NCBI GenBank assembly: GCA_025363655.1
Contig: JANYDK010000023.1
Span: 1-37,012 of the forward strand
Direction: 5' to 3'
Length of the DNA: 37,012 nt
DNA from: Deltaproteobacteria bacterium
Lineage (GTDB): Bacteria > Myxococcota_A > Polyangia > Polyangiales > JADJMO01
The notes below the pieces were generated by a model, which saw nothing but the letters and a program-made list of their open reading frames with translations, had not been told where the DNA came from and made no database searches. Shown one piece after another: positions 2 through 28,431 of the stretch; the first letter of the stretch is position 1, and each line of letters starts with the position of its first letter. The position numbers were made by a program, and so were the translations under genes.

Positions 2-439
2 ACCCAGAAGGGTCGGGAGGACTCGATCGCCGTGATCGCGGTCTCGCACTCGATCGTCAGCCCCCGTGACCCCCAGAGCGGCCTGCCCACCGGGCCGCGC
101 ATGCACAAGCCCTGGGTCTTCACCAAGGAGCTCGATAAGGCCACCCCGATCCTCTACAACATCCTCTGCACGAACGAGAACATCACCACGGCGACGTTCA
201 AGTTCTGGACGCCGCAGCTCAAGGCCGCCTCGGGCGTCGGCTCCGAGGTGCAGCACTACACGGTCAAGCTGACCAACGCGAACATCGCCTCGTACGACTT
301 CCGTCAGGCGAACATCCGTCACCCCGACCTCGTCAAGTTCACCGAGTACGAGGAGATCGCCCTCACGTACCAGAAGATCGAGTGGACCTGGAACGACGGC
401 GGCATCACTTCCGGCGACGACTGGGAAGCCCGCAACTAA
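2..439 (+). CDS. hcp: Hcp family T6SS tube protein (5' end outside window)
   Basis: The protein is an Hcp-family subunit; Hcp hexameric rings stack into the inner tube that the contracting sheath expels. The frame is open from base 2, reading TQKGREDSIAVIAVSHSI, so the GTG at 32 is internal and the true start lies upstream. The visible 145 residues contain the Hcp hallmarks: SHSIVSPRDPQSGLPTG, the conserved HKPWVFTKELDKATP segment, and the late beta-strand/tail IEWTWNDGG. By family length (about 160-170 aa) only some 15-25 residues are missing. It reads on its own towards a convergent operon and is followed by a strong hairpin terminator. It lies about 4.7 kb from the rest of the T6SS locus but is very probably the tube protein of that machine. 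Confidence 0.95.
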   Translation, partial: TQKGREDSIAVIAVSHSIVSPRDPQSGLPTGPRMHKPWVFTKELDKATPILYNILCTNENITTATFKFWTPQLKAASGVGSEVQHYTVKLTNANIASYDFRQANIRHPDLVKFTEYEEIALTYQKIEWTWNDGGITSGDDWEARN

Positions 440-5067: not shown

Positions 5068-5076
5068 TTCGCTCAC

Positions 5077-5174: not shown

Positions 5175-6272
5175 TCAGTCGACGAGAGCCGGCTCGCTGT
5201 CGTCGAAGTCGTCGGGCAGGGCTTCGGGCTTCTGCTTGGCGCTGTCTTCGCTGAGGACCATTCGGTAGCGCATCGGCTTGCGGCGGCTGGTGACGAGCTG
5301 GGTGGTGATGCCGAGTTGGCTGCCGCGCCGGCTGTTGAGTTGGAAGCGCGGCGACTCGGTCTCGGACAGCTTGAGCTCGAGCTCGGACTCGAGGACGCCG
5401 CCGCTGAACTGGTCGACGATTTGGCGGAGACGCGTGTTGTGGCGCCCGCCTGGCGCGAAGGCTTCGAAGACGTCGTAGCCGACGGGGCCGACGACGATGC
5501 GGAAGGAGCCGCTGCGATCGACGACGCTGCGGCCGATGGTGTAGTTCTGGCCGAGCTCGGTGTTCTGCTTGCCGAGCATCACGCGCTGCGACTCATCGAG
5601 GCGAACGCGGCGCGCGACGAACATCTCGATTTTGACGTCGACGCCCGGGAGCAAGCGCTCGAGCACGATTTGCAGTGTTCGCGAGGGCCGCGTGCGCGTT
5701 CCGGAGAGGAGCGGGGCGAGCGGCAACAAGTCGCCGGGCGGGAGGCCGTGCCGAGGAATGGCGCCGGCGATGTCGACGCCGACGAAGGAGAGCGCGCGGC
5801 GCGTGAACGGATCGTTGGCGTCGCTGCGGAAGCCGGCGGAGAAGCGGTACTTCTTCCAGGCGCGGTAGTAGAGGCTGAGGATTCGGTGATGGAAGATGTC
5901 GTAGAAGTCGCGGAGCGAGTGATCGTCGCCGTCGTTCTCGGCGCGGATGACGTCTTCGCTGACGAAGTTGGCGAGCGGTGACGCCGAGCCGAAGAGGCCG
6001 AGGAACGACGTCATCACGCGGGCGAAGACGTGGCCTGGTTTGACCACGCGCGGCTCGACGGAGATGACGTCGCTGGCGTGGAAAATCATCCGCGTGTCGT
6101 GGATGAACCGCACCGCTTCGGCGTTGAGCGGGCCGAGCTCGCCGACGCCGGCCGCACCGCTCCCGGCAAGGCGCTGCAACAACTGCACGACGCGAAAGAA
6201 GTCGAAACGATTCCCTTCGTCGGCGAGCAGCTGGCTTAAATTAGCGTTAGGCTTCCGCTCCGGGCCGGCCAT
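5175..6272 (-). CDS. tssG: T6SS baseplate subunit TssG
   Basis: A 365-aa TssG (VasB/ImpH family) protein. TssG joins two TssF copies in each baseplate wedge, around the VgrG hub. The N-terminus NLSQLLADEGNRFDFFRVVQLLQRLAG is the characteristic TssG opening, and RFIHDTRMIFHASDVISVEP, followed by VMTSFLGLFGSASPLANFVSEDVI, matches the family core. The start at 6272 gives a 37-bp overlap with the tssF stop, typical of coupled T6SS genes; the frame remains open upstream only because it is a shadow of tssF. The C-terminus after about residue 320 is charged and probably flexible. It is last in the minus-strand tssE-tssF-tssG operon. Confidence 0.93.
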   Translation of the reverse strand: MAGPERKPNANLSQLLADEGNRFDFFRVVQLLQRLAGSGAAGVGELGPLNAEAVRFIHDTRMIFHASDVISVEPRVVKPGHVFARVMTSFLGLFGSASPLANFVSEDVIRAENDGDDHSLRDFYDIFHHRILSLYYRAWKKYRFSAGFRSDANDPFTRRALSFVGVDIAGAIPRHGLPPGDLLPLAPLLSGTRTRPSRTLQIVLERLLPGVDVKIEMFVARRVRLDESQRVMLGKQNTELGQNYTIGRSVVDRSGSFRIVVGPVGYDVFEAFAPGGRHNTRLRQIVDQFSGGVLESELELKLSETESPRFQLNSRRGSQLGITTQLVTSRRKPMRYRMVLSEDSAKQKPEALPDDFDDSEPALVD

Positions 6273-8002
6273 TGGAATTTCAGTTTGCTGTTGATGCCGT
6301 TGACGGTCACCTTCGAGAACGAGTTCAGCGACACGTACTGCGCGAAGAGGTGATCGAGCACCGAGCCGAAGAGGTAGAGCTCGCCGTCGCCGACGAAGCC
6401 CTTCTCGTCGAGATCGATTTCGATGGCCACGCCGCGCACCGGTGCTCCGCGGTAGACCTGATCGGCCGGCTTGACGCGCACCTCTTTGATGGCTGCGAGG
6501 CGTAGCTCGTTGGCGCGTTGCGCTTGGCGGTCGACGAGCGCGTGCTGGTTGTAGACGTCGAGCGCGGCGCGGAGCACCTCGACCTCGGTGAGCGAGCGCA
6601 CGCCCATCGCCGCGTGAGCGATGACGCGCCACTGCAGCTCGCGGCCGAGCGGCGGCGGGACGTGCGGGGTGACCGCGGAGAGATTCTTGAACGTGGCGAT
6701 GGCCGGCGAGCTCGGCGTCGGCACCGAGATCTCACCCGCACGAAGCGCTGCCGCGAGGTTGCGGTTGGTCGCCAGGAGATCGATGGAGACGACGTCGGCC
6801 TCGGGGAGGACACCCGCGTCCTCGGGCGTGCCGAAGGAGATGGAGATGTCGGCGCCATCGTTGACCACGCTCGGGCGGATGTGCGTCGTGTAGAAGAACT
6901 GCGCCACGCCCTGCGGTCCGACGTGCGAAAAATCGTAGAATGACGGGATGTGGAAGCGCTTGCTGGTGCCGCGCGAGATCGCCTCGACGTTGGTGATCGC
7001 GTAGACCTCGCCTTGCGAGGGTGCGAGGCCGGCCGGTCGCACGTAGAACTCTTCGCGCTGCGGGTTGAGGCGAATCGGCTCCGAGGTGGTCTCGAAGATG
7101 TTCACCACCGGCACGCAATGGAGCTTGAGCGCGTCCTTCGGCAGGCGCGAGCCGATCGGCAAGGGCGAGTCGAAGCGGAAGCCGATGGCGAAGCGCGAAA
7201 TTCCTGGATCGAGCTCGGCGAGGCGACGCACGCCTTCGACGTCGACGAAGAGGAACTTCGACGGCAGCGTGTAGTACTCCTGCAGAAGTCGGAAGCCGGG
7301 GAATGCCGTGCGCGGGTAGGGGAGGAGGTTCTCGTCCTCTTCGAACCCGACGGCTTGCAGCGCGCGCCGCCCGAGCGAGATTTCGCGCTCGGTGCCGCCC
7401 GTCGGCTTCGACTCGATGAGCACCACGTCCTCGGTGTGCGTGTGCAACCAGAGGAGCATTTCGTAGGCGTTGCGCGGCTCGCCGTGGAGGTGGAAGCGCG
7501 CCTTCTGCGGAGCGACGTCGCTGATCGGCAGCGCCATCGGCACGCGCATCTCGACGCGCAGCTGGTAGCGGCCGCCCGCGAGCGTCTCGACGCGCAGATC
7601 TTCGATTTGCCAGGGCACGAGCTCGCACGGCACCGTCGAACGGAAGCGGCAGCTCGTGCCGTCGACGTCGATGCTCCCGAACTCGGCGCCCGGCTTCACC
7701 ACGTACGTCTCGCGGAGGACGTTGGGGAGCGGCGTGATCTCGAGGATCGCCGCGCTCGGCAACGGGCGCGTCAGCTGCGGGAAGAGCAGCTCGGTGAGCG
7801 AGTGAATCGCCTCCGGGAGCTCGTCGTCGAGCTTTTGCCGAATGCGACCGGTGAGGAAGGCGACACCTTCGAGCAGGCGCTCGACGTCCGGGTCGCCGCC
7901 GCGATCGGAGAGCATCGGAGCGAGGGCGGGATACGCCTGCGCGAACTCGCGGCCCAACTCCCGAAGGTAAGCCAGCTCGTCTTGGTAGTACTTGCTGAAC
8001 AC
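6236..8002 (-). CDS. tssF: T6SS baseplate subunit TssF
   Basis: A 588-aa TssF (VasA/ImpG family), the main scaffold of the T6SS baseplate wedge. The N-terminus MFSKYYQDELAYLRELGREF with AYPALAPMLSDRGGDPDVERLLEGVAFL is diagnostic, as are LPEAIHSLTELLFPQLTRPL and the C-terminal GVAIEIDLDEKGFVGDGELY followed by LFGSVLDHLFAQYVSLNSF. The length equals the family norm (about 580-600 aa). It starts 54 bp after tssE and overlaps tssG, consistent with one mRNA and co-assembly of the TssE, TssF and TssG subunits. Confidence 0.96.
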   Translation of the reverse strand: MFSKYYQDELAYLRELGREFAQAYPALAPMLSDRGGDPDVERLLEGVAFLTGRIRQKLDDELPEAIHSLTELLFPQLTRPLPSAAILEITPLPNVLRETYVVKPGAEFGSIDVDGTSCRFRSTVPCELVPWQIEDLRVETLAGGRYQLRVEMRVPMALPISDVAPQKARFHLHGEPRNAYEMLLWLHTHTEDVVLIESKPTGGTEREISLGRRALQAVGFEEDENLLPYPRTAFPGFRLLQEYYTLPSKFLFVDVEGVRRLAELDPGISRFAIGFRFDSPLPIGSRLPKDALKLHCVPVVNIFETTSEPIRLNPQREEFYVRPAGLAPSQGEVYAITNVEAISRGTSKRFHIPSFYDFSHVGPQGVAQFFYTTHIRPSVVNDGADISISFGTPEDAGVLPEADVVSIDLLATNRNLAAALRAGEISVPTPSSPAIATFKNLSAVTPHVPPPLGRELQWRVIAHAAMGVRSLTEVEVLRAALDVYNQHALVDRQAQRANELRLAAIKEVRVKPADQVYRGAPVRGVAIEIDLDEKGFVGDGELYLFGSVLDHLFAQYVSLNSFSKVTVNGINSKLKFQWPARSGSLTLI

Positions 8003-8056
8003 GGGGAGCCCGAGGCTACACCAGCCAACGCGAGCGGTGGCAGTCTCGTTTTCGAA

Positions 8057-8464
8057 CTAGCGCACGTGGACTTTTCGCGCGGGATCGACGCTCGTCTCGA
8101 ATTTGACGGGCGACTTGTGGTCGCCGCTGATGAGCTGGGCGCTGATTTCGAAGCGCAGGGTGAGGTCGCTGCCGTCGCCAGGGATGTGGCGGATGACGAC
8201 GTTGGTCAGGCGCGGCTCGTAGTTGAGGATGCTCTGGCGCATCGTCCGGGCCATCAGGGCGATGGCGTCGGGAAAGTTGTGAATGAGCTCGCTGACGTCG
8301 ACGACGCCGAAGTCTGGCGCGGTGATCATCGTTCCCCGGCGGGTCGTGCACATCCGGCGGAGGTGCTGCATCACGCTGTCGCGGGTCTCGGAATCCGAGA
8401 TGTTCCGACGAGCGATCGCGTATTCGGGGTTTCGAATGCGCGTCAGCAGCGTGTGTCCAGCCAT
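8057..8464 (-). CDS. tssE: T6SS baseplate subunit TssE (gp25-like)
   Basis: A 135-aa gp25/lysozyme-like protein of the TssE family, the baseplate part that primes sheath polymerisation. Typical features are LLTRIRNPE near the start, HLRRMCTTRRGTMITAPDFG (the gp25 core with the RxGT-type motif), and ARTMRQSILNYEPRLTNVVI. It is first in the tssE-tssF-tssG operon. The ATG at 8464 lies 62 bp from the divergent lipoprotein start at 8527, so both are controlled from that short gap. Confidence 0.94.
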   Translation of the reverse strand: MAGHTLLTRIRNPEYAIARRNISDSETRDSVMQHLRRMCTTRRGTMITAPDFGVVDVSELIHNFPDAIALMARTMRQSILNYEPRLTNVVIRHIPGDGSDLTLRFEISAQLISGDHKSPVKFETSVDPARKVHVR

Positions 8465-8473
8465 GAACGGATT

Positions 8474-8506
8474 TTGACACGACCTGGGCGAGAAAGTTGG
8501 GTAAAT
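8474..8506 (+). promoter_or_regulatory. Possible promoter for the 318-aa lipoprotein
   Basis: A perfect TTGACA lies at 8474-8479 in the divergent gap between tssE and the lipoprotein gene. The matching -10 is weak: TGGGTA lies 18 bp on and GTAAAT 21 bp on. It is suggestive only. Confidence 0.3.
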
Positions 8507-8526
8507 CCCTCGGCCCCGACTACCTT

Positions 8527-9552: not shown

Positions 9553-11424
9553 TCAGGTTCCGAGCGGTGCGCCGAGGGTGAACTCCTCGAGGCCGACGTC
9601 GACGAAGCCGTGAGGGCGGATGGTCACCTCGAGGAGGTTCTTCTTCGCGTCGACGCGTGCCGAGACCTCGGGTGCGCGCGGCGCGCTGGCGACGGCGAAG
9701 AGCTCGGCGAGCGCGAGGCGCGCGACCTCGCTGGCAGCGCCGGAGTCCGTGCCAGCAGGAATGGCCGCGGCGAGTTGTTCGATGGCGTTGGCGACGCGGC
9801 CGATGAAGAGCTGATCGGCCAGCGTCCCTTCGGCGACGGGTTCACCGGCGGGGTGCGACTTGCCACGGTAGAGGACCGGCGCGCGCGAGAGCACCGCATC
9901 GTCGCGATTGGCCGCGCAAGAGAGGAGCGTGAGGCCAGCGCGCGCCGCTTCGCCTTGTGCTTCGGTGTTGGCAAGGCTCTCGAGGGGGAGCGCGAAGTGC
10001 CCGCCCTTCTCCTGCATCTCGTAGACCGGAAGGTTGTCGACGATGCCGTTGCGGCCACCCGCGAGCATGCAGGGCCAACCGACGCGGACGTAGCTGGCGG
10101 CGGCGAGGGCAGCGACGATCCAGACGCCGCCCGCGAAGACGATGGCGCCGCGATCGTTGGCCGACTCTTCGATGGTGATGTCGCGCACGCGCGAGGACTG
10201 CGCGGTGTAGGGGAGACGGGCGACGAAGCGGTTGAGGACGATGGCGATCCAGCGTGATTCATCGCGTGTCGAGAGAGCACGCGTGAGCACCGCGCGCGGT
10301 TCGTCGACGTCGGTGAGGCGGCGCTTGCTCGTGATCATCGACGGGAGATCGGGCTCGCCGACCATCGCCGGCGTGCCGTTGACGAGGAGCGGTGCTCGCA
10401 TCGCAGCTGCGACCGCGGCCCATCGCGCCAGTCGATCGAGCTCGGCGGCGTTCGGGCTCACGGTGTGATCGACGACGATGAGGTCGACTGGCGCGCGCTC
10501 GGATTCGTTCCCGCGTCGCTCGGCCATGCGCAGGAGCGCCGCCTCGACGTCGTCCGCTTCGGCGCTGAGCACGTCGATTTCGACGCCGGCGCGGTGATCG
10601 GCGCGATCGACGAAGAGCTTGAGCCCACGCCACGACTCTTCGAGACGACGCACCTGCGGGTGCTGAAGCACGTCGTGGAGGATGCGCTGGAAGGCGCGTT
10701 CGACCTTCTCGGGAGCCTTGCCGACGACAGGGGCAGGGCGGGTCTCACCGCGCGCGCTGCGGGCGACGGCGGCGATGAGATCGGTCGCTTGATGGGGCGT
10801 GGTGTCGGGCGGCGGCATCGGCACCGGCACCGCTTCGGCCCTCGGCATCTCGACCTGCGACAGGAGCGAGTCGAGCGCGGAGCCACCGGCGTCAGGTTTG
10901 GCGACTGCAGCAGCAGGCGAGGGGGCGGCGGCGCGTGCGTCACCGACCTCGCGCGTGAGCTGCTCGGCCCAGGACGCGCGCGGGAGAATGCGCGTCAGCT
11001 GCGTTCGCGCGGCTTCGGCGGTCATGCGCCTTTCGGCCACTTGCTGGACGACGTTCCTCGCCGACAAGAGCGCGCGCAGCACCGGCACTTGCTCGACGAG
11101 CGCGTCGGGGCGCATCGCCTTCGATTCGGCGAAGCGGAGGTCGATGCGCAGCGGCGCCTCTTCGGCGACGAGCGGATCGGGCACCTCGATGACGAACGAC
11201 GGCGCGAGCTGCGACATCAGTCGATCGAGCGAGAGCTTGTCGCAAGAGAGCGCCTCTTCGGGAGGAGACGCTGCCGTCGACGCTTCCTTCTTCGCCGTCA
11301 GCTCGGCGACGACGAGGACCCGGAAGGGTGCGCGATCTTCGTTCTGCTGCGGCGGCGAGGCGTCGCCCTGCTTACCGAACCCGATGCCGAAGCCTGCGAT
11401 CCCGCCGGATTTCTTGTCGCTCAC
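9553..11424 (-). CDS. TssB-TssC single-chain fusion (divergent T6SS sheath-like protein)
   Basis: A 623-aa protein with both T6SS sheath subunits in one chain. Residues about 33-150 are TssB-like: FRVLVVAELT, LSLDRLMSQLAPSFVIEVPD, then LRIDLRFAESKAMRPDALVE and QVPVLRALLSARN, parallel to the separate TssB of this locus. A Pro/Ala linker (about 165-235) follows. Residues about 245-615 are TssC-like: VERAFQRILHDVLQHPQV, RRLEESWRGLKLFVDR (compare KLESAWRGLKFTVDR in the real TssC), VDNLPVYEMQEKGGHFALPL and a closing beta region EVTIRPHGFVDVGLEEF. Canonical sheath genes exist at 27935-29913, so this is an additional, diverged copy. It may cap, nucleate or regulate the sheath, or form a separate structure; the function is unknown. 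Confidence 0.85.
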   Translation of the reverse strand: MSDKKSGGIAGFGIGFGKQGDASPPQQNEDRAPFRVLVVAELTAKKEASTAASPPEEALSCDKLSLDRLMSQLAPSFVIEVPDPLVAEEAPLRIDLRFAESKAMRPDALVEQVPVLRALLSARNVVQQVAERRMTAEAARTQLTRILPRASWAEQLTREVGDARAAAPSPAAAVAKPDAGGSALDSLLSQVEMPRAEAVPVPMPPPDTTPHQATDLIAAVARSARGETRPAPVVGKAPEKVERAFQRILHDVLQHPQVRRLEESWRGLKLFVDRADHRAGVEIDVLSAEADDVEAALLRMAERRGNESERAPVDLIVVDHTVSPNAAELDRLARWAAVAAAMRAPLLVNGTPAMVGEPDLPSMITSKRRLTDVDEPRAVLTRALSTRDESRWIAIVLNRFVARLPYTAQSSRVRDITIEESANDRGAIVFAGGVWIVAALAAASYVRVGWPCMLAGGRNGIVDNLPVYEMQEKGGHFALPLESLANTEAQGEAARAGLTLLSCAANRDDAVLSRAPVLYRGKSHPAGEPVAEGTLADQLFIGRVANAIEQLAAAIPAGTDSGAASEVARLALAELFAVASAPRAPEVSARVDAKKNLLEVTIRPHGFVDVGLEEFTLGAPLGT

Positions 11425-11515: not shown

Positions 11516-12217
11516 TCACCAGCAGATGAGCCCGCCGGTGTATCCGCACTCGGGGCGCTGGAGGAGCGCGTAGGTCATGCCGAGGAGGAAGCCGGTGCCG
11601 AGACCGAGGGTCGCGCCGACCAGGTTCTGACCGGGTTTCTCCCAGTTGCCGACGCCGCGGCCAGCGTAGGTGAGGATGCTGGTGAGCAGCGGCACGCCGA
11701 GGTTTCCGATGACCGAGAAGACGTTCACCCGCCCATCGCTCCACTTGGTGGTGTCGATGAGGAACACGCCGGCACCGTGGCCGAGGGCGGCGAACGCCGC
11801 GAACGTGTGCGTCGAGGGGGCGCCGTAGTCGGTGCATCCTTCGACGAGGTCTTGGTTGTTCTCGTTGCAGTTCGGCCGGTAGCCCTTGACCGAGTACTTG
11901 AGCTGGTACTCGTTCACCAACGCCAGGGTGGTGATGGTCATCACCGGCGCGAGCACCGAGATGTGCCAGCGGGCCTTCCAGCCTACCGTCACCTCCGAGT
12001 CGGTATAGGCGATGCGAGGCATCAGGAGCTGGGTCGCTCCACCAATGAGCACCGCGGCGCCGGTGACGTTCTTCCAGTCTTTTTGTCGCACCGGCGCAGC
12101 GCCGACTTGTGCGGACGCCTCTCTCGGCGTTGCGACGGAAAGGAAGATCGAGGCGGCGAGCGTGAGCCCGGTGGCGCGAGCGGCCAGAGTGCGAAATGAA
12201 AGGCTTCGGGACGTCAT
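11516..12217 (-). CDS. PAP2-like membrane protein, probably inactive as a phosphatase
   Basis: A 233-aa protein with a signal peptide (LAARATGLTLAASIFLSVAT, cleavage probably after ASA at about 36) and several hydrophobic segments. It keeps PAP2 phosphatase motif 1 (K107-x6-R114-P115) and motif 2 as PSTH (134-137), but in motif 3 (R-x5-H-x3-D) the His is Glu193 and the Asp is Gln197. In PAP2 enzymes the motif 3 His is the phosphorylated nucleophile, so catalysis should be lost. The start at 12217 has GAGGAT six bases upstream. It lies between the FHA gene and the TssB-TssC fusion on the same strand. PAP2 membership rests on my reading of three short motifs. Confidence 0.65.
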   Translation of the reverse strand: MTSRSLSFRTLAARATGLTLAASIFLSVATPREASAQVGAAPVRQKDWKNVTGAAVLIGGATQLLMPRIAYTDSEVTVGWKARWHISVLAPVMTITTLALVNEYQLKYSVKGYRPNCNENNQDLVEGCTDYGAPSTHTFAAFAALGHGAGVFLIDTTKWSDGRVNVFSVIGNLGVPLLTSILTYAGRGVGNWEKPGQNLVGATLGLGTGFLLGMTYALLQRPECGYTGGLICW

Positions 12218-12476
12218 GAATTCATCCTCGGGACGGGCCTTCGGCAAAGGACGGCTGACTTCTCTTGCTCTCGGTGATGCCTAGTGCGTCGACTTCGAGC
12301 AGGCGACTTCCGCGTGATTCGACGCGAGCCTCGCGCGAGCATCGCCGCGGCATGAGCAAAGGGCCAACCAAACGGCAGGCGTATCTACCTCATTCACCCC
12401 GGCGCTCGGAAGCCTATCGACGATCGGCTTTCAAATACCCGGCTATTTACATAATGCATCGATGTAATTCGACGAG
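12218..12476. other. Intergenic region with an AT-rich inverted repeat
   Basis: These 259 bp separate the FHA gene stop from the PAP2-like start on the same strand. I see no gene. Near the FHA end is an unusually AT-rich patch (12428-12470) with the inverted repeat TTACAT (12447-12452) and ATGTAA (12462-12467), spaced by 9 bases; it could be a regulator site for the PAP2-like and fusion genes. Confidence 0.35.
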
Positions 12477-13967
12477 TCAGCCGCCGCGACGTCCCCCAGC
12501 GGGCGGCGGTGGCCACTCGAAGGGGTTGGGAGCGTCGGGATTGCCCTTGGGCGGCGCGACGATCTTGGGGGGCATTTGCACCCCGAGCGGCGGGGTGACG
12601 TTGGCGGGTGGGAGCGCCGACTGGTTGGTGGGGAAGGAAGCGGTGCGCTGCTGTCCCGTCACCCGCTCACCTCCACCGCCTCCACCGCCGCCGCCGTGAT
12701 CGGAGAGCTGGGTGTAGGCCTGTACGAACTGCGGACCGAAGATGAGGCCGAACGCCTCCTTGTCTTCGTCGGCGAGATCGCTGTGTCGCTCGCCGTACAC
12801 CTTCCAGAGGGACTCGTAGTTCTTGCCGAAGAAGCTGCCGGCCACCTTCTTCTTCTCGGCGAGGTTCTCGATCTCGCGCGGGGAGAGCTCGCGGAGCAGC
12901 GACTTCACGCCGCGCATGACGCCGTCGAGCATCGCCACTTGGTGGATCATCAAGTCGGCGAAGATGCCTTCGATCGAGCGCGGTCCGTCGTTCGATGGAT
13001 CCATCGGATCGAGGAGGAGCTGACCGAGCTCTTTCGGATCTTTGGCGGTCTCGACGGTCTTCTTCCCGTCGGACTTCACCGCCGTCATCCGCTTGATCTC
13101 CATCTTCGACTCGAACTGCTTGTACCCGTCACGGAGCGGGATGAAGCACTTGAGGAAGACGTCCAGCGTGTCTTGCACCTTGCTGACGAACTGGACGATC
13201 GACTCGCTGCCTTCGATCGAGCGGTTCGGCGCGTACTGCTGCGCGAGCTCTTTCACTGCCTGCAGCGCCAACATTTCATCTTGCTTGGCGGCACCTGAAC
13301 CGACGGTCGGCGGAAGGTTCGCCTTGAACACCTGCGCCAGGCGTTGGAAGTCCGGCTCGAAGCCGACGGCGGGCGAGGTGAGGTTGAGTTGCTCGAGGAG
13401 CGACGCGCGCGAGGCGGGATCGAGCGTGCCGGCGTGCACACAGAGGTCTTGGTAGAACTTCCCCCAAGCCGCGCGATACGCGTCGTACATCGGCTTGAGC
13501 TTGCCCATCGTATCGCCGACCGCGGGACTGCTCCCCACCATCGGCGGCATCGCGGTGCCGCCGATCATCATCGACGCCGGCATCGAGCCTTCGAGGAAGA
13601 GGCCACCCTTCTTGCGCGCGACCGACGCTGCTTGCGTGTCGACCTCGGCGGGGAACGCCTGGAAGAAGAGCGACGAGATCGCGAACTCGAAATTGACCGG
13701 ATTGAGGTCGATGAGTTGGTGCGCCGTCACCTTGCCGCTTCCGCGGATCATCGTCCCGTTCTTGCTGCCGAGATCGCGGAGCATCAGGCTGTTGCCCTGC
13801 AGCTCGAGCACGGCGTGGAACTGAGAGACGAAGGGCGAATCGATTTGAAAGTCGTTGAGCGGATTTCGGCCAATACGAACCGGAAAGCGGTCGAATGTCC
13901 GCTCCAACATGTTCTTGTCTTGCGTGTTCGTCACGCGTAGCCGCAGACCGAGTGCCACGTCCCTCAC
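12477..13967 (-). CDS. tagH: T6SS FHA-domain protein (TagH/ImpI type)
   Basis: A 496-aa T6SS-associated FHA protein. Residues about 20-100 form an FHA phosphothreonine-binding domain with its hallmarks RIGRNPLNDFQIDSPFVSQFH and LRDLGSKNGT. Residues about 190-440 match the helical C-terminal domain of the T6SS FHA family, including AAWGKFYQDLCVH and LREIENLAEKKK-like helices. A run of nine glycines and a Pro-rich tail with APNPFEWPPPPAGG end the protein. In other species FHA partners act in the PpkA/PppA threonine-phosphorylation switch; neither gene is in this window. The start is uncertain between GTG 13967 and GTG 13958; the longer frame to 14060 lacks support. Confidence 0.87.
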   Translation of the reverse strand: MRDVALGLRLRVTNTQDKNMLERTFDRFPVRIGRNPLNDFQIDSPFVSQFHAVLELQGNSLMLRDLGSKNGTMIRGSGKVTAHQLIDLNPVNFEFAISSLFFQAFPAEVDTQAASVARKKGGLFLEGSMPASMMIGGTAMPPMVGSSPAVGDTMGKLKPMYDAYRAAWGKFYQDLCVHAGTLDPASRASLLEQLNLTSPAVGFEPDFQRLAQVFKANLPPTVGSGAAKQDEMLALQAVKELAQQYAPNRSIEGSESIVQFVSKVQDTLDVFLKCFIPLRDGYKQFESKMEIKRMTAVKSDGKKTVETAKDPKELGQLLLDPMDPSNDGPRSIEGIFADLMIHQVAMLDGVMRGVKSLLRELSPREIENLAEKKKVAGSFFGKNYESLWKVYGERHSDLADEDKEAFGLIFGPQFVQAYTQLSDHGGGGGGGGGERVTGQQRTASFPTNQSALPPANVTPPLGVQMPPKIVAPPKGNPDAPNPFEWPPPPAGGRRGG

Positions 13968-14354
13968 GCTACCACACCTCGCGAATCCGTCTGCGTGCTC
14001 TGGCGCGTTCCGGAGGGTGGCCGGTCGCCCATCATGGGAGACCCATTTGACGGGGCCCATTTAAGGAAGTGGTGATGCATGCGGTTTCGACGCGCCGCGA
14101 TAGACTCGGACGCAGTCTCGTCGGCGGCGACTCAGCCGGACGAAGCGCGCTCTTGCCGCCCGAGGGGGCCTCCGCCACAAGGGTCGGTCTGCGCGCCGGT
14201 GGATTTGTTGAGGTCGAGGGGGCGTGTGTGGGATCCTGCGCCGAGAGCGAGCGGATCGTGCCGGAAGGCACTTTCCAGCGAGCAGTCGAAGGGGCCTTCC
14301 CGACCTTCGGCGGGCGAACGTACCGACGACCAGAGCGGACCAACGGAAAAGCCG
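13968..14354. other. Divergent intergenic region with phased CCCAT repeats
   Basis: This 387-bp region lies between the FHA gene (minus) and the lytic transglycosylase (plus). No convincing gene fills it; frames that cross it are extensions of flanking genes. Three CCCAT copies start at 14028, 14042 and 14056, exactly 14 bp apart, and could be a direct-repeat binding site 60-95 bp upstream of the FHA start. A small GTGCC/GGCAC hairpin lies near 14270. Confidence 0.45.
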
Positions 14355-15702: not shown

Positions 15703-18345
15703 ATGCTCGTCGCCGAACCGCGCTCGCTGCTCCGCAAGCTCAACGCCACTTGTACTCGCGCGCTCGAAGCGGCCGCGAGCTCCTGCATCGGTAGCCGTCA
15801 CTTCGAGGTGACGGTCGAGCACGTGCTCCTCGCCTTGATGGACGATCTCGAGAGCGACGTCGTCGCTGCGCTCGAGCACTACAAGATCGACGCCGGTCAC
15901 GCGAAGGGCCAGCTGCAGCGCTATCTCAGCGACCTGCGCTCGGGGAACGCGGGCAAGCCGGTCTTCTCGACGCTCCTCTTCGAGTGGGTGCAGGACGCCT
16001 GGATCTTCGCCTCGACCGAGTGGTCCGACGCCAACGTGCGTTCGGGCGCACTCCTCGTGCGTCTCGTACAGTCGCCGAGCAAGTACCTTCCCGGTGAGCT
16101 CCCGCTCCTCGATCGCTTCCCCAAGGAAGATCTGAAGAGCAACCTCACGACCCTCGCGGCGCACACCAAAGAGGCAGCCTCGTCGGGTCCGGCCGCTGCC
16201 GCCGGTGGCGCTGCTGCTGCTCCCGGCAAAGACGGCAAGGGCGCGGCGACCGCGCTCGGCAAGCCCGACGGCCCGCTCGCCAAGTTCACCACCGACCTCA
16301 CCGCCCGCGCAAAATTGGGCGAAATCGATCCGGTCTTCGGACGCGAAGCCGAGATTCGTCAGGTCGTCGACATCCTCGTTCGTCGCCGCAAGAACAACCC
16401 GATCATCGTCGGTGAAGCGGGCGTCGGTAAGACGGCCCTCGTCGAAGGTCTCGCGGTTCGCATCGCCGAGGGCACCGTCCCCGAGCAGCTGAAGAACGTC
16501 TCCATCCTCACGCTCGATCTCGGCGCGCTCCAAGCAGGTGCCGGCGTGAAGGGCGAGTTCGAGAATCGCCTCAAGGGCGTCATCGCCGAGGTGAAGTCGT
16601 CACCGCGCCCGATCGTCCTCTTCATCGACGAAGCGCACACCATCATCGGCGCTGGCGGCGCGCAGGGAAGCGGCGACGCCGCCAACTTGCTCAAGCCCGC
16701 GCTGGCCCGCGGCGAGCTGCGCACCATCGCGGCCACCACCTGGAGCGAGTTCAAGAAGTACTTCGAGAAGGACGCTGCCCTCGAGCGTCGCTTCCAGCCG
16801 GTCAAGGTCGACGAACCGTCGATCGAAGTCGCGACGCTGATGATCCGCGGCATCGCCAACAAATTCGAAGAGTCGCACGGCATCATCATCCAGGACGAAG
16901 CCGTCCGCGCAGCCGTCACGCTCTCGAGCAAGTACATCTCGGGACGTCTCCTCCCCGACAAGGCGGTCGACCTCCTCGACACCAGCGCGGCTCGCGTGAA
17001 GGTGCAGCGCGCGGCGATGCCGGGCGTCATCGAAGACGCGAGGGCCGAGCTTGCCGGCATCGAGCGTGAGCTCACGGCGATGGATCGCGACTACAAGGCC
17101 GGCCTCCCGCTCGACGAAGAAAACAACGTCAAGCTGAAAGAGCGCAAAACCAAGCTCGAAGAGCGCCTCACCGAGGCGACCGCGCGTCACACCGAGCAGA
17201 TGGCGATCGTCGTCAAGATCGACGAGCTGCGCAAGCTGACGGCGGCGGGCGACGCGGCGAAGGGTGAAGAGCTCCGCGCCGAAATCAACAGGCTGAAGTC
17301 GATCAAGCCGGAGCTGCGGCTGGTCTCGGCCGACGTCGACGAGGCACTCGTCGCTTCGATCGTCGGCGACTGGACCGGCATCCCGGTCGGCAAGATGGTC
17401 GCCGACGACGTCAAGGCGATCCTCAACATGGAGGACAACCTCCGTGCGCGCGTCCGCGGCCAAGACGGCGCCCTCGCGATCATCGCCAAGGAGCTCCGCG
17501 CCGCACGTTCGGGCATCAAGCCGACCACCGCGCCGCTCGGCGTCTTCATGCTCGTCGGGCCGTCCGGCGTCGGTAAGACCGAGACCGCGCTCGCGCTCGC
17601 GGATCTCCTCTTCGGTGGCGAACGCTTCATCGTCACCATCAACATGAGCGAGTTCCAAGAGCGCCACACGACGTCGCGCCTCATCGGCTCGCCGCCGGGC
17701 TACGTCGGCTTCGGCGAGGGCGGCATGCTCACCGAGGCGGTTCGTCAGCGTCCGTATTCGGTCGTCCTCCTCGACGAGTGCGAGAAGGCCGACAAAGACG
17801 TGATGAACTTGTTCTACCAGGTGTTCGACAAGGGCATGCTCTCCGACGGTGAAGGTCGAATCATCGACTTCAAGAACACCGTCGTCATCATGACGTCGAA
17901 CCTGGCGACCGACCTCATCACCAACGCCGCGCCTCCCGGTGGCGACATCCCGCCGCTCGAGGACATCACCGCGCTCGTCAAGCCGGTCGTCAGCGCGCAC
18001 TTCAAGCCCGCGCTTCTCGCCCGCATGACGCTCGTCCCCTACATCCCGATCGGCCCCGAGGCCCTCTTCGGGATCGTCAAGATGAAGCTCGGCGCCGTCG
18101 TCAAGCGCGCCAAGCAGTCGCAGAACGTCGACATCGCAGTCGACGATCCCGTCCTCACCGCGATTGCCGATCGTTGTCGCGAGGTCGAGTCCGGCGCGCG
18201 CAACGTCGATCACATCCTCCGAGGCAAGGTGATGCCGCTGATCTCCAACGAGATCCTCGGCGCCATGGCCAAGGGCGAGCCAATCGACAAGCTCCGTCTC
18301 AGCCTCGACAAAGATGGCGAAATCATCTGCGTCGTCGGGGGCTGA
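15703..18345 (+). CDS. tssH: T6SS AAA+ ATPase TssH (ClpV)
   Basis: An 880-aa ClpB-family AAA+ ATPase of the ClpV/TssH class, which disassembles contracted TssB/TssC sheaths so subunits can be reused. The N-domain contains SSCIGSRHFEVTVEHVLLAL; an Ala/Gly linker follows at about 165-190. The first AAA module has Walker A GEAGVGKTA (about 236-244) and Walker B IVLFIDEAH (about 305). A middle coiled-coil region follows, then the second module with Walker A GPSGVGKTE (about 618-625) and VVLLDECEKAD (about 687). PDKAVDLLDTSAARVK and NMSEFQERHTTSRLIGSPPG are further family signatures. It is the second gene of the plus-strand operon, 59 bp before tssJ. Confidence 0.97.
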   Translation: MLVAEPRSLLRKLNATCTRALEAAASSCIGSRHFEVTVEHVLLALMDDLESDVVAALEHYKIDAGHAKGQLQRYLSDLRSGNAGKPVFSTLLFEWVQDAWIFASTEWSDANVRSGALLVRLVQSPSKYLPGELPLLDRFPKEDLKSNLTTLAAHTKEAASSGPAAAAGGAAAAPGKDGKGAATALGKPDGPLAKFTTDLTARAKLGEIDPVFGREAEIRQVVDILVRRRKNNPIIVGEAGVGKTALVEGLAVRIAEGTVPEQLKNVSILTLDLGALQAGAGVKGEFENRLKGVIAEVKSSPRPIVLFIDEAHTIIGAGGAQGSGDAANLLKPALARGELRTIAATTWSEFKKYFEKDAALERRFQPVKVDEPSIEVATLMIRGIANKFEESHGIIIQDEAVRAAVTLSSKYISGRLLPDKAVDLLDTSAARVKVQRAAMPGVIEDARAELAGIERELTAMDRDYKAGLPLDEENNVKLKERKTKLEERLTEATARHTEQMAIVVKIDELRKLTAAGDAAKGEELRAEINRLKSIKPELRLVSADVDEALVASIVGDWTGIPVGKMVADDVKAILNMEDNLRARVRGQDGALAIIAKELRAARSGIKPTTAPLGVFMLVGPSGVGKTETALALADLLFGGERFIVTINMSEFQERHTTSRLIGSPPGYVGFGEGGMLTEAVRQRPYSVVLLDECEKADKDVMNLFYQVFDKGMLSDGEGRIIDFKNTVVIMTSNLATDLITNAAPPGGDIPPLEDITALVKPVVSAHFKPALLARMTLVPYIPIGPEALFGIVKMKLGAVVKRAKQSQNVDIAVDDPVLTAIADRCREVESGARNVDHILRGKVMPLISNEILGAMAKGEPIDKLRLSLDKDGEIICVVGG

Positions 18346-19091: not shown

Positions 19092-20447
19092 ATGGCACGC
19101 AAGCTCGTCTGGACCGAAGGCCTCTTCGTCACCCAGCACCACTTCCAACAACAAGATCGCTACCACGAGGAGCTCCTGCAAGAGCGCCTCTCGGCGGCGA
19201 TGGCGTTCGAGTGGGGCATCACCGACGTCGAGATCGACGAGCGAGCGCTCAGCGCCGGTCAAGTGAAGATCAATCGCCTGAAGGCCATCCTCCCGGACGG
19301 CACGCCGATCAGCGTCGGGGAGGGGCTCGACGACGCGGTCCCGATTCGCGCGATCGAAGCGGCGTTCACCGCACAGATGCGCAACTTCGAGATCCATGTC
19401 GCGATCGCCAACGAGACGGACAATCAGGCGAACACCGAGCTCGAAGGCAAGCCCGGCGCGCTGACGCGTTGGGTGCGCACCACCAGCTCGGCGCTCGACA
19501 TCAACTCGGCGACGCAAGAGTCGCAAATCAGTTGGGCGCGCAACAACCTCCGCATCCTCTTCGGCGACGAGCGACGTGATTCGTTCGACGCCATTCGCGT
19601 CGGCGAGCTCGTACGCGCCTCGACGGGGGCGGTGGTCTTCAAGGAGACGCACGTTCCGCCGGTCTTGCAGGTGCGCGCCTCGCCGTTCCTCATCGCCGGT
19701 TTCCGTCGCCTCCTCGGCGCGATGACCGCGCGTCAGCGAAGCCTCGCCGAAGGGCGTCGCATGCGCACGGCGGCGGCGATCGACTTCGCCGCGAGCGACG
19801 CGGCCAAGTTCTGGCTCCTCAACGCGCTCAACACCTTCATCCCGCAGATCAGCCACATCGTCGACCTCGGGACGATGCATCCGGAGCACGCGTATCTGAC
19901 GCTCGCGCAGCTCATCGGCACGCTCTGCACGTTCGCCGTCGACGGCGATCCGACGGCGATCCCGAAGTTCAACTACCTGACACTCGGCGACGTCTTCGGG
20001 CCGATGTTCGAGCTGGTGATGAACCTGCTCAACGCCGTCATCCTCGAGCGCTACGTGCAGATCCCGCTGCAGAAGCGCGAGGACGGCATGTACCTCGGCA
20101 AGATGGAAGACCCGAAGGTCCTCCGCTACGAGTTCTACCTCGCCGCCGCCGGCTCGGTCCCCGAGCCCCAAGTGCGCGATCGTCTCCCGAAGCTCCTGAA
20201 AATCGCCTCCTGGGGGCAAATCGGCCAGATCCTCAACTCCGCCGTCAACGGAGCGAAGATCGAGCTGGAATTCCGGCCCCCTGGCGCCCTCCCGATCAAG
20301 CCGGGGGTGACCTTCTTCAAGGTCATTCGAACCCCGGATTTTTGGGGGGACATCGCCGGTACGGGTACGATCGCTCTGTACCAGCCCGTCGACCCCAACG
20401 CCCTCACTCTCACGCTCTACGCCGTCGACCCCGCGAACCTCGAGTGA
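19092..20447 (+). CDS. tssK: T6SS baseplate-membrane connector TssK
   Basis: A 451-aa TssK, the trimeric adaptor that docks the baseplate onto the TssL/TssM membrane complex. The N-terminus KLVWTEGLFVTQHHFQQQDR is the family signature. Further marks are WGITDVEIDERALSAGQVKI, PDGTPISVGEG and the C-terminal helix and strand ending LTLTLYAVDPANLE. Length is standard for the family. The ATG starts at the base after the tssJ stop, indicating strict cotranslation; tssL follows after 50 bp. Confidence 0.96.
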   Translation: MARKLVWTEGLFVTQHHFQQQDRYHEELLQERLSAAMAFEWGITDVEIDERALSAGQVKINRLKAILPDGTPISVGEGLDDAVPIRAIEAAFTAQMRNFEIHVAIANETDNQANTELEGKPGALTRWVRTTSSALDINSATQESQISWARNNLRILFGDERRDSFDAIRVGELVRASTGAVVFKETHVPPVLQVRASPFLIAGFRRLLGAMTARQRSLAEGRRMRTAAAIDFAASDAAKFWLLNALNTFIPQISHIVDLGTMHPEHAYLTLAQLIGTLCTFAVDGDPTAIPKFNYLTLGDVFGPMFELVMNLLNAVILERYVQIPLQKREDGMYLGKMEDPKVLRYEFYLAAAGSVPEPQVRDRLPKLLKIASWGQIGQILNSAVNGAKIELEFRPPGALPIKPGVTFFKVIRTPDFWGDIAGTGTIALYQPVDPNALTLTLYAVDPANLE

Positions 20448-20497: not shown

Positions 20498-21181
20498 ATG
20501 CTCGACAAGATGTATTGGGTCTGCAGTGACGTGCTCACGCTGGCGACGCAGCTCAGCACGGCGCGCGATCTCCCTTCTCCGGACATCCTCCAGCGTCGCA
20601 TCGACACGCTGTTCGAGCAGATGGCGGGCAAGGCCCGTGAAGCGAACGTCCCCGATCCCGATGTCGCCGACGCCAAGTACGCGCTCGTCGCCTTCATCGA
20701 CGAACAAATCTTCCGCTCGCCGTGGCCGGGTCGGAATCAGTGGATGGGGCGCCCTCTACAGCTCGTCTATTACAACGAGAACACGGCCGGCGAAGGCTTC
20801 TTCACGCGTCTCAACACGCTGCAGAACAACCCCTCGCGGGCGCACGTCCTCGAAATCTACTACCTCTGCCTCACGCTCGGCTTCCAAGGCATGTACGCGG
20901 TGCGCGGCGACGAAGCAGGGCTCGCTGCCGTCACCGAGCGTGCCGGCGCCGTCCTCACGCGTCTCCTCCCGCCGTCCGATCGCATCGCGCCCCACGGCGA
21001 TCCGCAGGACTCGGGGCGCAACCTCAACAGGCGCGACGCTCCGCTGATCACGCTCGGGCTCGTCTGTCTGGCGTTGGCGGTGCTCGCCTTCGTCGGTCTC
21101 AAATTCATGATCTCCTCGGCGGCCAGCGACGCCGTCGGCACCATGAACAAGGCCAAGACCACGCAGGGTTCGACCAAGTAA
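20498..21181 (+). CDS. tssL: T6SS inner-membrane protein TssL (DotU-like)
   Basis: A 227-aa TssL of the DotU/IcmH family, a cytoplasmic helical domain held by one C-terminal membrane segment. The cytoplasmic domain shows YALVAFIDEQIFRSPWPG, GRPLQLVYYNENTAGEGFF and EIYYLCLTLGFQGMYAVRG, the classic family core. The membrane segment is about residues 181-204 (TLGLVCLALAVLAFVGLKF), and the tail is short. There is no OmpA-like peptidoglycan-binding extension, so wall anchoring must come from another protein or the transglycosylase context. It lies between tssK and tssM. Confidence 0.95.
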   Translation: MLDKMYWVCSDVLTLATQLSTARDLPSPDILQRRIDTLFEQMAGKAREANVPDPDVADAKYALVAFIDEQIFRSPWPGRNQWMGRPLQLVYYNENTAGEGFFTRLNTLQNNPSRAHVLEIYYLCLTLGFQGMYAVRGDEAGLAAVTERAGAVLTRLLPPSDRIAPHGDPQDSGRNLNRRDAPLITLGLVCLALAVLAFVGLKFMISSAASDAVGTMNKAKTTQGSTK

Positions 21182-21266: not shown

Positions 21267-24200
21267 ATGTGGGTCTGGATCTTAGCGGCGGTACTGCTCA
21301 CTGCGATCTGGGTCGGGGGTTACTTCCTCAGCCTGGTCCTCTGGATCAAAATCGTCGCCTCCGTCGGCGTCGTCTTGTTCCTCGTCACCATCCTCCTGCT
21401 CCGCAGGTGGAGGGCGGTGCGCGCAGCCAAGGCGCTCGAACGCGAAATCATGCGCCAAGCGGCGCAGCAGGCGGCCAACACCCGTCCTGATCGTCGCGCC
21501 GAGATCATCGAGCTCCAGGAGCAAATCCAGAAGGGCATCGCCTCTCTCAAGGCGAGCAAGCTCGGCAACGTCACCGGTGCGGCGGCGCTCTATGCGCTCC
21601 CCTGGTACGTCATCATCGGCCCGCCCGGCGCCGGCAAGACCACCGCACTCAAACACTCCGGCCTCGAGTTCCCCTTCCTCGATCCGCGCGGCGGCGGCGT
21701 CCGCGGCGTCGGCGGCACCCGCAACTGCGACTGGTGGTTCACCAACGAGGCGATCATCCTCGACACCGCCGGTCGTTACGCGACCGAGCAGGACGACCAC
21801 GAAGAGTGGATCGCCTTCCTCGGCATGCTCCGCCGCTTCCGCGTGAAGAAGCCGATCAACGGCGTCATCGTCGCCGTCTCGGTCGCCGACCTCGCGCAGG
21901 CCACCGAAGAGCAAATCGACACCTATTCGAAGAAGCTCCGCGCCCGCATCGACGAGGTGATGACCCGCCTCGAGATGGTGGTGCCGGTCTACGTCACCTT
22001 CACCAAGAGCGACCTCATCGCCGGCTTCGTCGAGTTCTTCGGCGACCTCCGCAAGAGCGAACGTGGTCAGACCTTCGGCGCCACCTTTCCGCTCGACGCC
22101 GGCAGCAACCCGGGCTTCGAGCCGGCGCGGGCCTTCGAGCGTGAGTTCGACATCCTCGTCGAGACGCTCCACTCGCGCGGCGTCAAGCGTCTGCAGAGCG
22201 AGCGCGTCGCCGAGGCGCGCACCAAGATCTTCCAATTCCCCCTGGAATTCCAGTCTCTGCGGAGCAACCTCGCCGAGTTCATCGGCGCGCTCTTCCAGAA
22301 GAACACGTTCCAGGAGACGCCGATTTTCCGTGGCGTCTACTTCACCTCGGGCACCCAGGAAGGTCGCCCGATGGACCGCGTCCTCGGGTCGATGGCCCGC
22401 GCGTTCGGCCTTCGTCCGCAGGCCGCCGAGGCGACCGAAGCGCCGAAGGAGAGCAAGAGCTACTTCGTCACCGACCTCTTCAAGAAGGTCTGTTTCCCCG
22501 ATCAGAACGTCGCCGCGCGCACCGCTCGCGAGTCACGTCGGCAGCGTCTCCGTCGCGTGCTCTACGCCGCTGCGGCGGTGGTCATCGCGGTGATGCTCAT
22601 CATCCCCTCGTCCTGCACCTACGTCCGCAACAAGGACCTCGTCGACTCCACCTCCGACATCGCGAGCAAAGCGACGAAGGTCAAGTGGGACGACGGCGGC
22701 GCGGTCCCCGACAAGACCGACAAGCTGGTCGGCATCAAGAACCGCCTCATCAAGCTCGAGGACTGGCGCCAGAACGGCGCGCCCATCGGGATGCGTTGGG
22801 GCATGTACACCGGCGACTCGCTCTACGAGCCGCTCCGCAATCTCTATCTCTCCATCCTCGACAAGGGTCTGCGCGATCGCACGAAGCCCCTCATCGAAGA
22901 GCGTCTGCAGAAGATCGATCCGACCTCGGTCCGCGAAGCGCAGCAGTACGGCCTCGCGTACAACGATCTCAAGCTCTACATCATCATGACCGAGCCGAAG
23001 AAGCGGCTCCCCGACTACCTCGACCTGACGAAAGCCGATCAGGACAAGGACTGCTCCCCGGCGCAGGGCGGTGGTGATCCCGACTGCTACGCCAGCATCA
23101 ACCTCACCAAGGCTTGGGCCGGCGCGCTGAAGAAAGAGGGCGACAAAGAGGCCGAGGACGCGCTTCGTCCGCACGTCAACGAGTACCTCCGCTACCTCAA
23201 GAGCGGCGATCTCAAGCCGTGGAAGGCCGATGACTCGCTCGTCACCAAGACGCGCGGCATCCTCCTCCAGGTCCCGCAGCTGCAGCGCAACTACGCGGCG
23301 CTCACGGGCATCGCCAGCGCCGAGAACCCGGCCATCACCAAGGAGATGATCTTCTACGGATCGATCGCTCCCTATGTGTCGTCGAAGAAGGGCGTGAAGG
23401 TCGACGGCGCCTACACCAAGAAGGGCTGGAACACGGTCCGTCAGGCGCTCCAGTCGCAGCAGTCGCAGCTCAACTCCGAGGTGTGGGTCCTCAACGAAGA
23501 CCTCACCGCCAAGGTCGACGTCTTCAAGCAGATCATCGACCTGCGCAACCAGTACTTCGAGAACTACAAGAAGGCCTGGCGCGACTTCCTCATGGATCTC
23601 GAGGTCGAGAAGCCCGACAACGCCGAGCGCGCGCTCGACGAGCTGCAGGCCCTCTCCGAGTCCGAGTGGCCGTATCAGCGCCTCATCCGCATCCTCGACG
23701 AGAACGTGACGCTCGACGTCGGCGAAGCGGAGGATGGTCCCGATCAGTTCGAGACCGGCGCGGCCGCCAAACTCAACCAGAAGATCAGCCAGAAGACGGG
23801 CTCCGCCCTCCAAGGCACCGGCATCGACTCGGGCGTCAGCGTCACCAACAAGCCGAAGGGTCGCCCGATCTCGCCGGTCGAGCGTGATTTCAAGCCGATC
23901 ACGAAGTTCGGCGTCTCCGGAGTGACGCCGAAAGAGGGCGAGCAGGGCCCGCCGACGAACCTCAAGCAGTACCAAGATCTCCTCGCCAAGATCGGCGCCG
24001 TCCTCAGCGATCTCAAGGACAGCAAGGCGCAGCCCGATCCGAAGGCGATGCAAGCGGAGTTCGAGACCGCGTTCCGCTCCGCGAGCGCACTCCTCGCCGA
24101 TCAGGACGGCTTCACCCGTCCGATTCTCTCGCCGCTGATCATGAACCCGATCACGCTCGCGTGGGGCGCCGTGCTCCACGACTCCGGCGGGGCCGGGAGC

Positions 24201-27934: not shown

Positions 27935-28429
27935 ATGGGCAAAGAAGGATCGGTCGCTCCCCAGGAGCGCGTGAACATCACGTACAAACCGTCGACGGGC
28001 AACGCGAAGGAGGAAGTCGAGCTTCCCCTCAAGATGCTCTTCATGGGCGATTACACGGGTCGTGCAGACCCTCGTCCCCTCGAGGAACGCAAGCCGATCA
28101 ACATCGACAAGGACAACTTCAATCAAGTCCTCGCCGAGCACAATCTGAGCGTCGATCTCAGCGTCCCCGACGTCCTCTCCGGCGAGAAGGACGCGTCACT
28201 CGCGGTGAAGCTCAAGTTCCGCAAGCTCTCGGACTTCGGTCCGGAGGCCGTCGCAGAGCAGGTTCCGGAACTGAAGAAGCTTCTCGAGCTTCGTCAGGCG
28301 CTCACGGCTCTCAAGGGCCCGCTCGGCAACGTCCCGACCTTCCGCAAGAAGATCCAGGCGCTGCTGGCGGACTCGACGAACCGCGAGAAGCTGATGAAGG
28401 AGCTCGGCATCAATAAGGAGCAGGGGTGA
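27935..28429 (+). CDS. tssB: T6SS sheath small subunit TssB
   Basis: A 164-aa TssB (VipA), which forms the contractile sheath with TssC. Diagnostic motifs are RVNITYKPSTGNAKEEVELP, LKMLFMGDYTGRADPRPLEE and the helix LADSTNREKLMKELGI at the C-terminus. Length equals the family norm. The stop overlaps the region just before the tssC ATG, with 2 bases between them, so expression is coupled. The N-domain of the fusion protein at 9553 corresponds to this gene. Confidence 0.96.
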   Translation: MGKEGSVAPQERVNITYKPSTGNAKEEVELPLKMLFMGDYTGRADPRPLEERKPINIDKDNFNQVLAEHNLSVDLSVPDVLSGEKDASLAVKLKFRKLSDFGPEAVAEQVPELKKLLELRQALTALKGPLGNVPTFRKKIQALLADSTNREKLMKELGINKEQG

Positions 28430-28431
28430 CC

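What the first reader, a model, noticed from the sequence alone, without database searches (positions are those of the whole stretch)
9553..11424. Single-chain TssB-TssC fusion beside normal tssB and tssC
The 623-aa protein reads TssB-like then TssC-like, joined by a Pro/Ala linker, while separate canonical tssB and tssC lie 16 kb away. Many TssC core positions differ, so it is probably not a spare sheath subunit. A fused protomer fixes 1:1 stoichiometry and could serve as a cap, a nucleation ring at the baseplate, a sheath stop, or part of a different contractile structure.
Basis: partly seen in the sequence, partly recalled or inferred. Interest (0 to 1): 0.78.

Follow-up and report, generated by a model that had tools for sequence, protein, structure and literature searches.

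The report
Single-chain T6SS sheath-like accessory protein
Many Myxococcota and some Planctomycetota with a type VI secretion "crossbow" also keep a second, odd sheath protein in which the two normal sheath subunits are joined in one chain; it is conserved, goes with the machine, and looks built to sit at the sheath without contracting, but its exact job is unproven.

Summary
Window 9553-11424(-) encodes 623 aa: TssB-like (res. 28-160, E=4.5e-19), Pro/Ala linker, TssC-like (240-513, E=4e-34), beside canonical tssB/tssC. It is a conserved family, not a one-genome oddity: full or partial copies in 53 of 240 genomes sampled from the class (51 of 92 with TssK, 2 of 148 without; p=4e-24), in Polyangium, Minicystis and Sorangium, and in about 15 of 246 Planctomycetota genomes. 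In both trees fused and canonical halves fall on opposite sides of one branch. dN/dS is 0.09-0.47, so it is under purifying selection. The predicted fold is a TssB:TssC protomer in one chain, like phage/eCIS sheaths.

All fused proteins lack the canonical RxRRPLR and EYGxFGG signatures. Myxococcota members mostly lost the two charged residues that V. cholerae VipB needs for assembly (K223) and contraction (D333), and the TssB arm length, fixed at 12 in canonical TssB, is no longer fixed. A ClpV-motif-like helix (LDxLL) is kept in the linker. Best reading: a T6SS-dedicated, non-contracting sheath-like accessory subunit, perhaps an end ring (0.45). Position and function are inferred. I found no published description in the library searched.

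The parts
9553..11424 (-). Fused TssB-TssC gene (623 aa, GTG start)
11341..11424 (-). N-terminal arm, residues 1-28, with FGIGFG motif (putative TssB beta-1 donor arm; 15 residues to the APFR strand in this protein, 12 in canonical TssB)
   Evidence: strand role inferred from PMC5807055
10945..11343 (-). TssB/VipA-like domain, residues 28-160
   Evidence: PF05591 E=4.5e-19; solved TssB chains matched
10708..10944 (-). Pro/Ala-rich linker, residues 161-239; low model confidence over most of it
10849..10878 (-). Conserved LDSLL helix in the linker (residues 183-192), aligned with the ClpV-binding LLDEIL motif of canonical TssC
   Evidence: motif from PMC4239648
9886..10707 (-). TssC/VipB-like core (sheath N-terminal domain), residues 240-513
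   Evidence: PF05943 E=4e-34; VIA Z 22-24 to TssC structures over 231-508
9556..9828 (-). C-terminal domain (residues 533-623): two helices and three strands like the gp25-like domain of TssC, lacking the RxRRPLR loop; no Pfam VipB_2 match
27935..28429 (+). Canonical tssB
   Evidence: PF05591 E=8.9e-57
28426..29913 (+). Canonical tssC
   Evidence: PF05943 E=2e-129 and PF18945 E=2e-43
12477..14060 (-). T6SS FHA protein gene, same strand upstream of the fused gene
   Evidence: PF20232, PF00498; near the fused gene in several other loci
11516..12247 (-). PAP2-like membrane protein gene between FHA and the fused gene; same order in L035 and L032/L033
8497..9483 (+). Conserved putative lipoprotein (LQGC lipobox), no Pfam match; homologue next to the fused gene in L035, L037, L038, L040-L042, L044, L046
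8057..8464 (-). tssE (gp25)
   Evidence: PF04965 E=9.2e-14
6236..8002 (-). tssF
5175..6632 (-). tssG
15703..18345 (+). tssH (ClpV)
   Evidence: TIGR03345, 1125 bits
18174..19091 (+). tssJ
19092..20447 (+). tssK
20498..21181 (+). tssL
21267..24950 (+). tssM
26054..27694 (+). tssA (ImpA_N + VasJ)
32..439 (+). hcp (open at the window edge)

Best explanation
The gene encodes a T6SS-dedicated accessory subunit: a TssB:TssC sheath protomer folded as one chain. It most likely docks on the ordinary TssBC sheath through its retained N-terminal arm and C-terminal strand, forming a small special layer at an end of the sheath rather than building it. It should not contract like the bulk sheath, and probably does not grip the Hcp tube in the normal way. 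After firing it may be recycled by ClpV through the LDxLL helix in its linker. SHOWN by computation: the fused chain, its fold class, its family-wide conservation, its link to the T6SS, purifying selection, and loss of canonical signatures. INFERRED: entry into the sheath, an end position (distal rather than basal is only a lean), non-contraction, altered tube contact and ClpV recognition. The fusion itself is geometrically easy: in the P. aeruginosa sheath the untraced stretches, including the TssB C-terminus and the TssC N-terminus, lie at the outer extremity and termini (PMC5807055).
For: Both halves match Pfam TssB and TssC; of 24 family members, 24 match TssC and 21 match TssB. The AF2 model (mean pLDDT 72.6) aligns to solved TssC at Z 21-24, and to single-chain phage/pyocin/eCIS sheaths across both halves (residues ~29-507) at Z 12-15. 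Fused and canonical TssC parts are split by one branch, 100/100 support; the TssB part likewise, SH-aLRT 91. Co-occurrence with TssK: 51/92 vs 2/148, p=4e-24. It persists when unlinked from T6SS loci, e.g. 100-375 kb away in Sorangium and Minicystis. dN/dS 0.09-0.47. VipB K223-equivalent: K/R in 38/40 canonical, 5/43 fused; D333-equivalent: E/D in 40/40 versus 3/43; in the window protein they are L and T. In V. cholerae K223A stops assembly and D333A gives sheaths that do not contract (PMC5797969). The TssB arm linker is 12 residues in 35 of 36 parsed canonical proteins but variable in fused ones, +3 in the window protein; in V. cholerae, lengthening it by 2 or more residues abolishes killing. 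The RxRR part of the RxRRPLR loop is absent from essentially all 49 fused proteins. LDxLL helix; LLDEII is the ClpV-binding motif. Precedent: PVC/AFP use several sheath proteins.
Against: No direct evidence that it enters a sheath. Planctomycetota members keep the K223 and D333 charges (5/7 and 7/7) and have a near-canonical arm length, so loss of contraction is not a family-wide trait; within the window's own subgroup D is kept in 2 of 5. One subgroup (L037, L038, L040, L042, L045) lacks the N-terminal arm. Relative conservation of donor and acceptor strands does not single out an end, because canonical TssC shows the same gradient. TssA, a known sheath-end protein, is also present. In Sorangium and Minicystis the gene is far from T6SS genes.
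Confidence: 0.45

Rival explanations
1. Soluble regulator or decoy: the fused protomer does not join a sheath but binds sheath subunits, TssA/TssE or ClpV (through the LDxLL helix) and tunes assembly or recycling; its place beside the FHA gene would fit post-translational control.
For: Same-strand neighbour of FHA in the window, L035 and several other loci; conserved LDxLL helix; assembly- and contraction-critical charges lost in Myxococcota members.
Against: The whole protomer fold and the C-terminal strand are kept, more than a decoy needs; in Polyangium the gene sits by tssC-tssB, not shown beside FHA.
Confidence: 0.22
2. Minor subunit mixed into the sheath along its length, stiffening it or setting its stability.
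For: Fold and arms compatible with copolymerisation; Planctomycetota members keep K223/D333 charges and near-canonical arm length.
Against: Low similarity to the canonical partner (24% identity); loss of nearly half of the near-invariant TssC positions; RxRRPLR loop missing.
Confidence: 0.15
3. Sheath of a separate contractile or non-contractile structure built from the fused protein alone.
For: Predicted fold resembles single-chain sheaths that self-assemble; gene unlinked from T6SS loci in Sorangium, Minicystis and genus g288.
Against: Presence tracks TssK; single copy beside canonical sheath genes; no second tube/baseplate set was noticed beside it in the loci read, though this was not searched for systematically.
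Confidence: 0.08
4. Redundant or decaying duplicate of the sheath genes.
For: Evolves faster than canonical TssC (dN/dS 0.09-0.47 vs 0.07-0.13; longer branches).
Against: Purifying selection, open frames in distant families and two phyla, conserved motifs.
Confidence: 0.03

Closest known systems
Canonical T6SS sheath TssB/TssC (VipA/VipB; solved in M. xanthus 5urw/5urx, V. cholerae 3j9g/5mxn, P. aeruginosa 5n8n)
   Same: Homologous in both halves; same predicted fold; LDxLL-like helix and H1 helix before the TssC core; C-terminal strand kept.
   Different: One chain; separated by one long branch; lacks RxRRPLR and EYGxFGG; in Myxococcota mostly lacks K223/D333 charges; arm linker length not fixed; scores below both NCBIfam equivalog cut-offs.
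Multiple sheath proteins of eCIS (PVC, AFP)
   Same: A second, divergent sheath protein beside the main one; single-chain sheath fold.
   Different: Those belong to phage-like extracellular particles; here the partner sheath is a two-chain T6SS sheath with ClpV. The analogy is functional and untested.
TssA/TagA sheath-end proteins
   Same: Proposed to act at a sheath end or in sheath assembly.
   Different: Unrelated family (ImpA_N); the window has its own TssA.
TssE/gp25 sheath initiator
   Same: The C-terminal domain of TssC is gp25-like, and the baseplate end is one possible site.
   Different: TssE is separate and present; the fused protein is a whole protomer.

Membership tests
TssB (VipA), PF05591 / TIGR03358 | Match to the TssB profile | tested here: met
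   PF05591 69.2 bits (cut-off 24), residues 28-160
TssB (VipA), PF05591 / TIGR03358 | Score above the canonical TssB equivalog cut-off | tested here: not met
   TIGR03358 69.5 vs cut-off 97.25
TssB (VipA), PF05591 / TIGR03358 | N-terminal arm with fixed linker length | tested here: not met
   12 in 35/36 parsed canonical; 15 here, variable or absent in the family
TssC (VipB), PF05943 + PF18945 / TIGR03355 | Match to the VipB N-terminal domain | tested here: met
   118.5 bits (cut-off 27)
TssC (VipB), PF05943 + PF18945 / TIGR03355 | Match to the VipB_2 gp25-like C-terminal domain | tested here: not met
   No match at E<=0.01; a similar order of helices and strands is predicted
TssC (VipB), PF05943 + PF18945 / TIGR03355 | Score above the canonical TssC equivalog cut-off | tested here: not met
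   TIGR03355 110.3 vs cut-off 271.5
TssC (VipB), PF05943 + PF18945 / TIGR03355 | Charged residues at VipB K223 and D333 | tested here: not met
   L and T in the window protein; 5/43 and 3/43 in the fused set; kept in most Planctomycetota members
TssC (VipB), PF05943 + PF18945 / TIGR03355 | N-terminal ClpV-binding helix (LLDEII type) | tested here: inconclusive
   LDSLL aligned at that place; binding not tested
Single-chain contractile sheath fold (phage, pyocin, eCIS) | Both parts in one chain in the same order and fold | tested here: met
   Z 12-15 alignments spanning model residues ~29-507; predicted model only
eCIS accessory sheath subunit (PVC/AFP type) | Located in a distinct layer of the particle | not testable with these tools
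   Needs imaging or a complex structure
T6SS component | Co-occurs with T6SS core genes | tested here: met
   51/92 TssK+ vs 2/148 TssK- genomes, p=4e-24

The most novel reading that the evidence does not exclude
[quoted passage not shown] An even bolder sub-reading, that it descends from a sheath that never split into TssB and TssC, is not excluded but is less likely.
Probability: 0.3. Interest if true: 0.82.

Novelty: new variant of a known kind. Interest (0 to 1): 0.62.

Why it matters
[quoted passage not shown] cholerae reconstruction (PMC5813253). A conserved, one-per-genome, single-chain protomer that has lost contraction-critical residues in myxobacteria gives a named, deletable candidate for a specialised sheath layer, and a natural tool for asking how sheaths start, stop or are held uncontracted.

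Tried and rejected
1) Arguing for a distal position from a degenerate acceptor strand (b11) and conserved donor strand (b13): canonical TssC shows the same gradient, so this was dropped. 2) A family-wide non-contractile claim: dropped, since Planctomycetota members keep the K223/D333 charges and near-canonical arm length. 3) A genome-contig scan with the single window protein found nothing, and the broad alignment gave no searchable stretch; the narrower alignment A3 worked, so the named list is biased to Polyangiaceae. 4) tblastn on plasmids: 57 records match, none over 80% of the query. 5) Taking 8016-8480(-) as tssE: wrong frame, the real tssE is 8057-8464(-). 6) Literature: no natural TssB-TssC fusion found with the terms tried; subscription papers are not in that library. 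7) Residues of the Hcp contact could not be taken from open papers, so altered tube contact stays an inference.

Full report
OBSERVATION. The ORF at 9553-11424(-) is real: 623 aa from a GTG. Residues 28-160 match T6SS_VipA (E=4.5e-19) and 240-513 match VipB (E=4e-34). The stretch between is Pro/Ala-rich, with one conserved LDSLL helix. Canonical tssB and tssC are at 27935-28429 and 28426-29913, within a T6SS cluster that also holds tssE, F, G, H, J, K, L, M, A, an FHA gene and hcp. The window's genome holds one fused gene and one canonical tssC.

A FAMILY. A profile of ten relatives run over 377 Myxococcota genomes gave a bimodal result when scored on the fetched loci: mostly full-length single ORFs of about 500-660 aa at 200-777 bits, and canonical TssC at about 140 bits or less. 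Sampling 240 genomes of the class, I count 53 with a full or partial fused gene. The same sample searched for TssK gives 51 of 92 TssK-positive genomes with the fused gene and 2 of 148 TssK-negative ones, Fisher p=4e-24. The two exceptions are incomplete assemblies, and one (G023) carries the gene next to a T6SS FHA gene. Named bearers are Polyangium fumosum and other Polyangium, Minicystis rosea, Sorangium cellulosum So0157-2, So ce26 and So ceGT47, and a Planctomycetota MAG. In Planctomycetota about 15 of 246 genomes carry it (my count); most of those read share the N-terminal FGFG and the linker motif. The nine genomes of named records checked have one fused gene and 1-5 canonical TssC.

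NEIGHBOURS. In the window and L035 the order is FHA, PAP2-like, fused gene, with a lipoprotein gene converging on it; in L037, L038, L040-L042 and L044 the FHA, lipoprotein and fused genes lie together. In Polyangium the fused gene faces tssC-tssB. In Sorangium and Minicystis it lies 100-375 kb from the nearest tssC; in So0157-2 its neighbour is a homoserine dehydrogenase gene. Retention without linkage argues for function.

HISTORY AND SELECTION. In a tree of 43 fused and 40 canonical TssC parts the two groups are the two sides of one branch, 100/100 support, 1.9 changes per column; the TssB parts agree, SH-aLRT 91. This favours one old origin over repeated fusions, though long branches meet and the root is unknown. 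dN/dS between close relatives is 0.09-0.47 (canonical 0.07-0.13): purifying selection, faster change.

FOLD. The model (pLDDT 72.6, linker mostly under 50) matches TssC structures at Z 21-24. Phage, pyocin and eCIS sheaths match across both halves at Z 12-15, in the same order. So the chain is predicted to fold as one protomer. Fusion needs little: in the P. aeruginosa sheath the untraced residues, described as at the outer extremity and termini, include the TssB C-terminus and the TssC N-terminus (PMC5807055).

WHAT IS LOST AND KEPT. Of 109 near-invariant TssC positions, 48 are kept in under 10% of fused proteins. The RxRR loop and the EYGxFGG motif are gone in essentially all 49. VipB K223 (needed for assembly) and D333 (needed for contraction; PMC5797969) correspond to K/R in 38/40 and E/D in 40/40 canonical proteins, but only 5/43 and 3/43 fused; the window protein has L and T. 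The TssB arm linker is 12 residues in 35 of 36 parsed canonical proteins and of variable length in fused ones; in the window protein it is 15. In V. cholerae, insertion of 2 or more residues there abolishes killing. Kept: the C-terminal strand, the WRGL helix, and a helix aligned with the LLDEII ClpV-binding motif (PMC4239648). Limits: Planctomycetota members keep both charges and near-canonical arm length, and one Myxococcota subgroup lacks the arm.

MECHANISM. Best reading: a T6SS-dedicated, sheath-like accessory subunit that docks on the TssBC sheath and makes a special, non-contracting layer, possibly at an end, with ClpV recycling through the linker helix (0.45). PVC/AFP have several sheath proteins (PMC8894135), and the V. 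cholerae distal end was left unassigned, sheath subunits without Hcp being one option (PMC5813253). Which end is not decided: a conservation argument for the distal end failed its control. Rivals: soluble regulator (0.22), mixed minor subunit (0.15), separate structure (0.08), decay (0.03).

NOVELTY. It scores below the equivalog cut-offs for TssB and TssC, and no paper found in the held library describes a natural TssB-TssC fusion. I call it a new variant of a known kind.

Noticed in passing
window 32-439 (+) and 726-1625 (-): hcp (PF05638) sits next to a MbnB/TglH/ChrH-type RiPP-modification enzyme gene (PF05114).
   Followed up: no
window 8497-9483 (+): Putative lipoprotein without Pfam match, conserved beside the fused gene in several T6SS loci; possible new T6SS accessory.
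   Followed up: partly
window 3652-5076 (-): Protein without Pfam match whose homologues lie in the T6SS neighbourhoods of L033 and L035.
   Followed up: no
window 14079-15620 (+): SLT lytic transglycosylase inside the T6SS cluster, divergent to FHA; related proteins in L032 and L035.
   Followed up: no
L039 12749-14233 and 14375-15883 (+): Two tandem canonical-like tssC genes; the second is 62.6% identical to the window tssC.
   Followed up: no
Planctomycetota genomes G618:C7, G736:C16, G581:C202, G639:C111, G696:C8, G603:C76, G725:C14: Pairs of tandem TssC-like ORFs, the second more divergent; a possible second kind of sheath paralogue.
   Followed up: no
genomes G516 and G524: Single-contig genomes with 6 and 5 TssK genes and no fused gene seen.
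   Followed up: no
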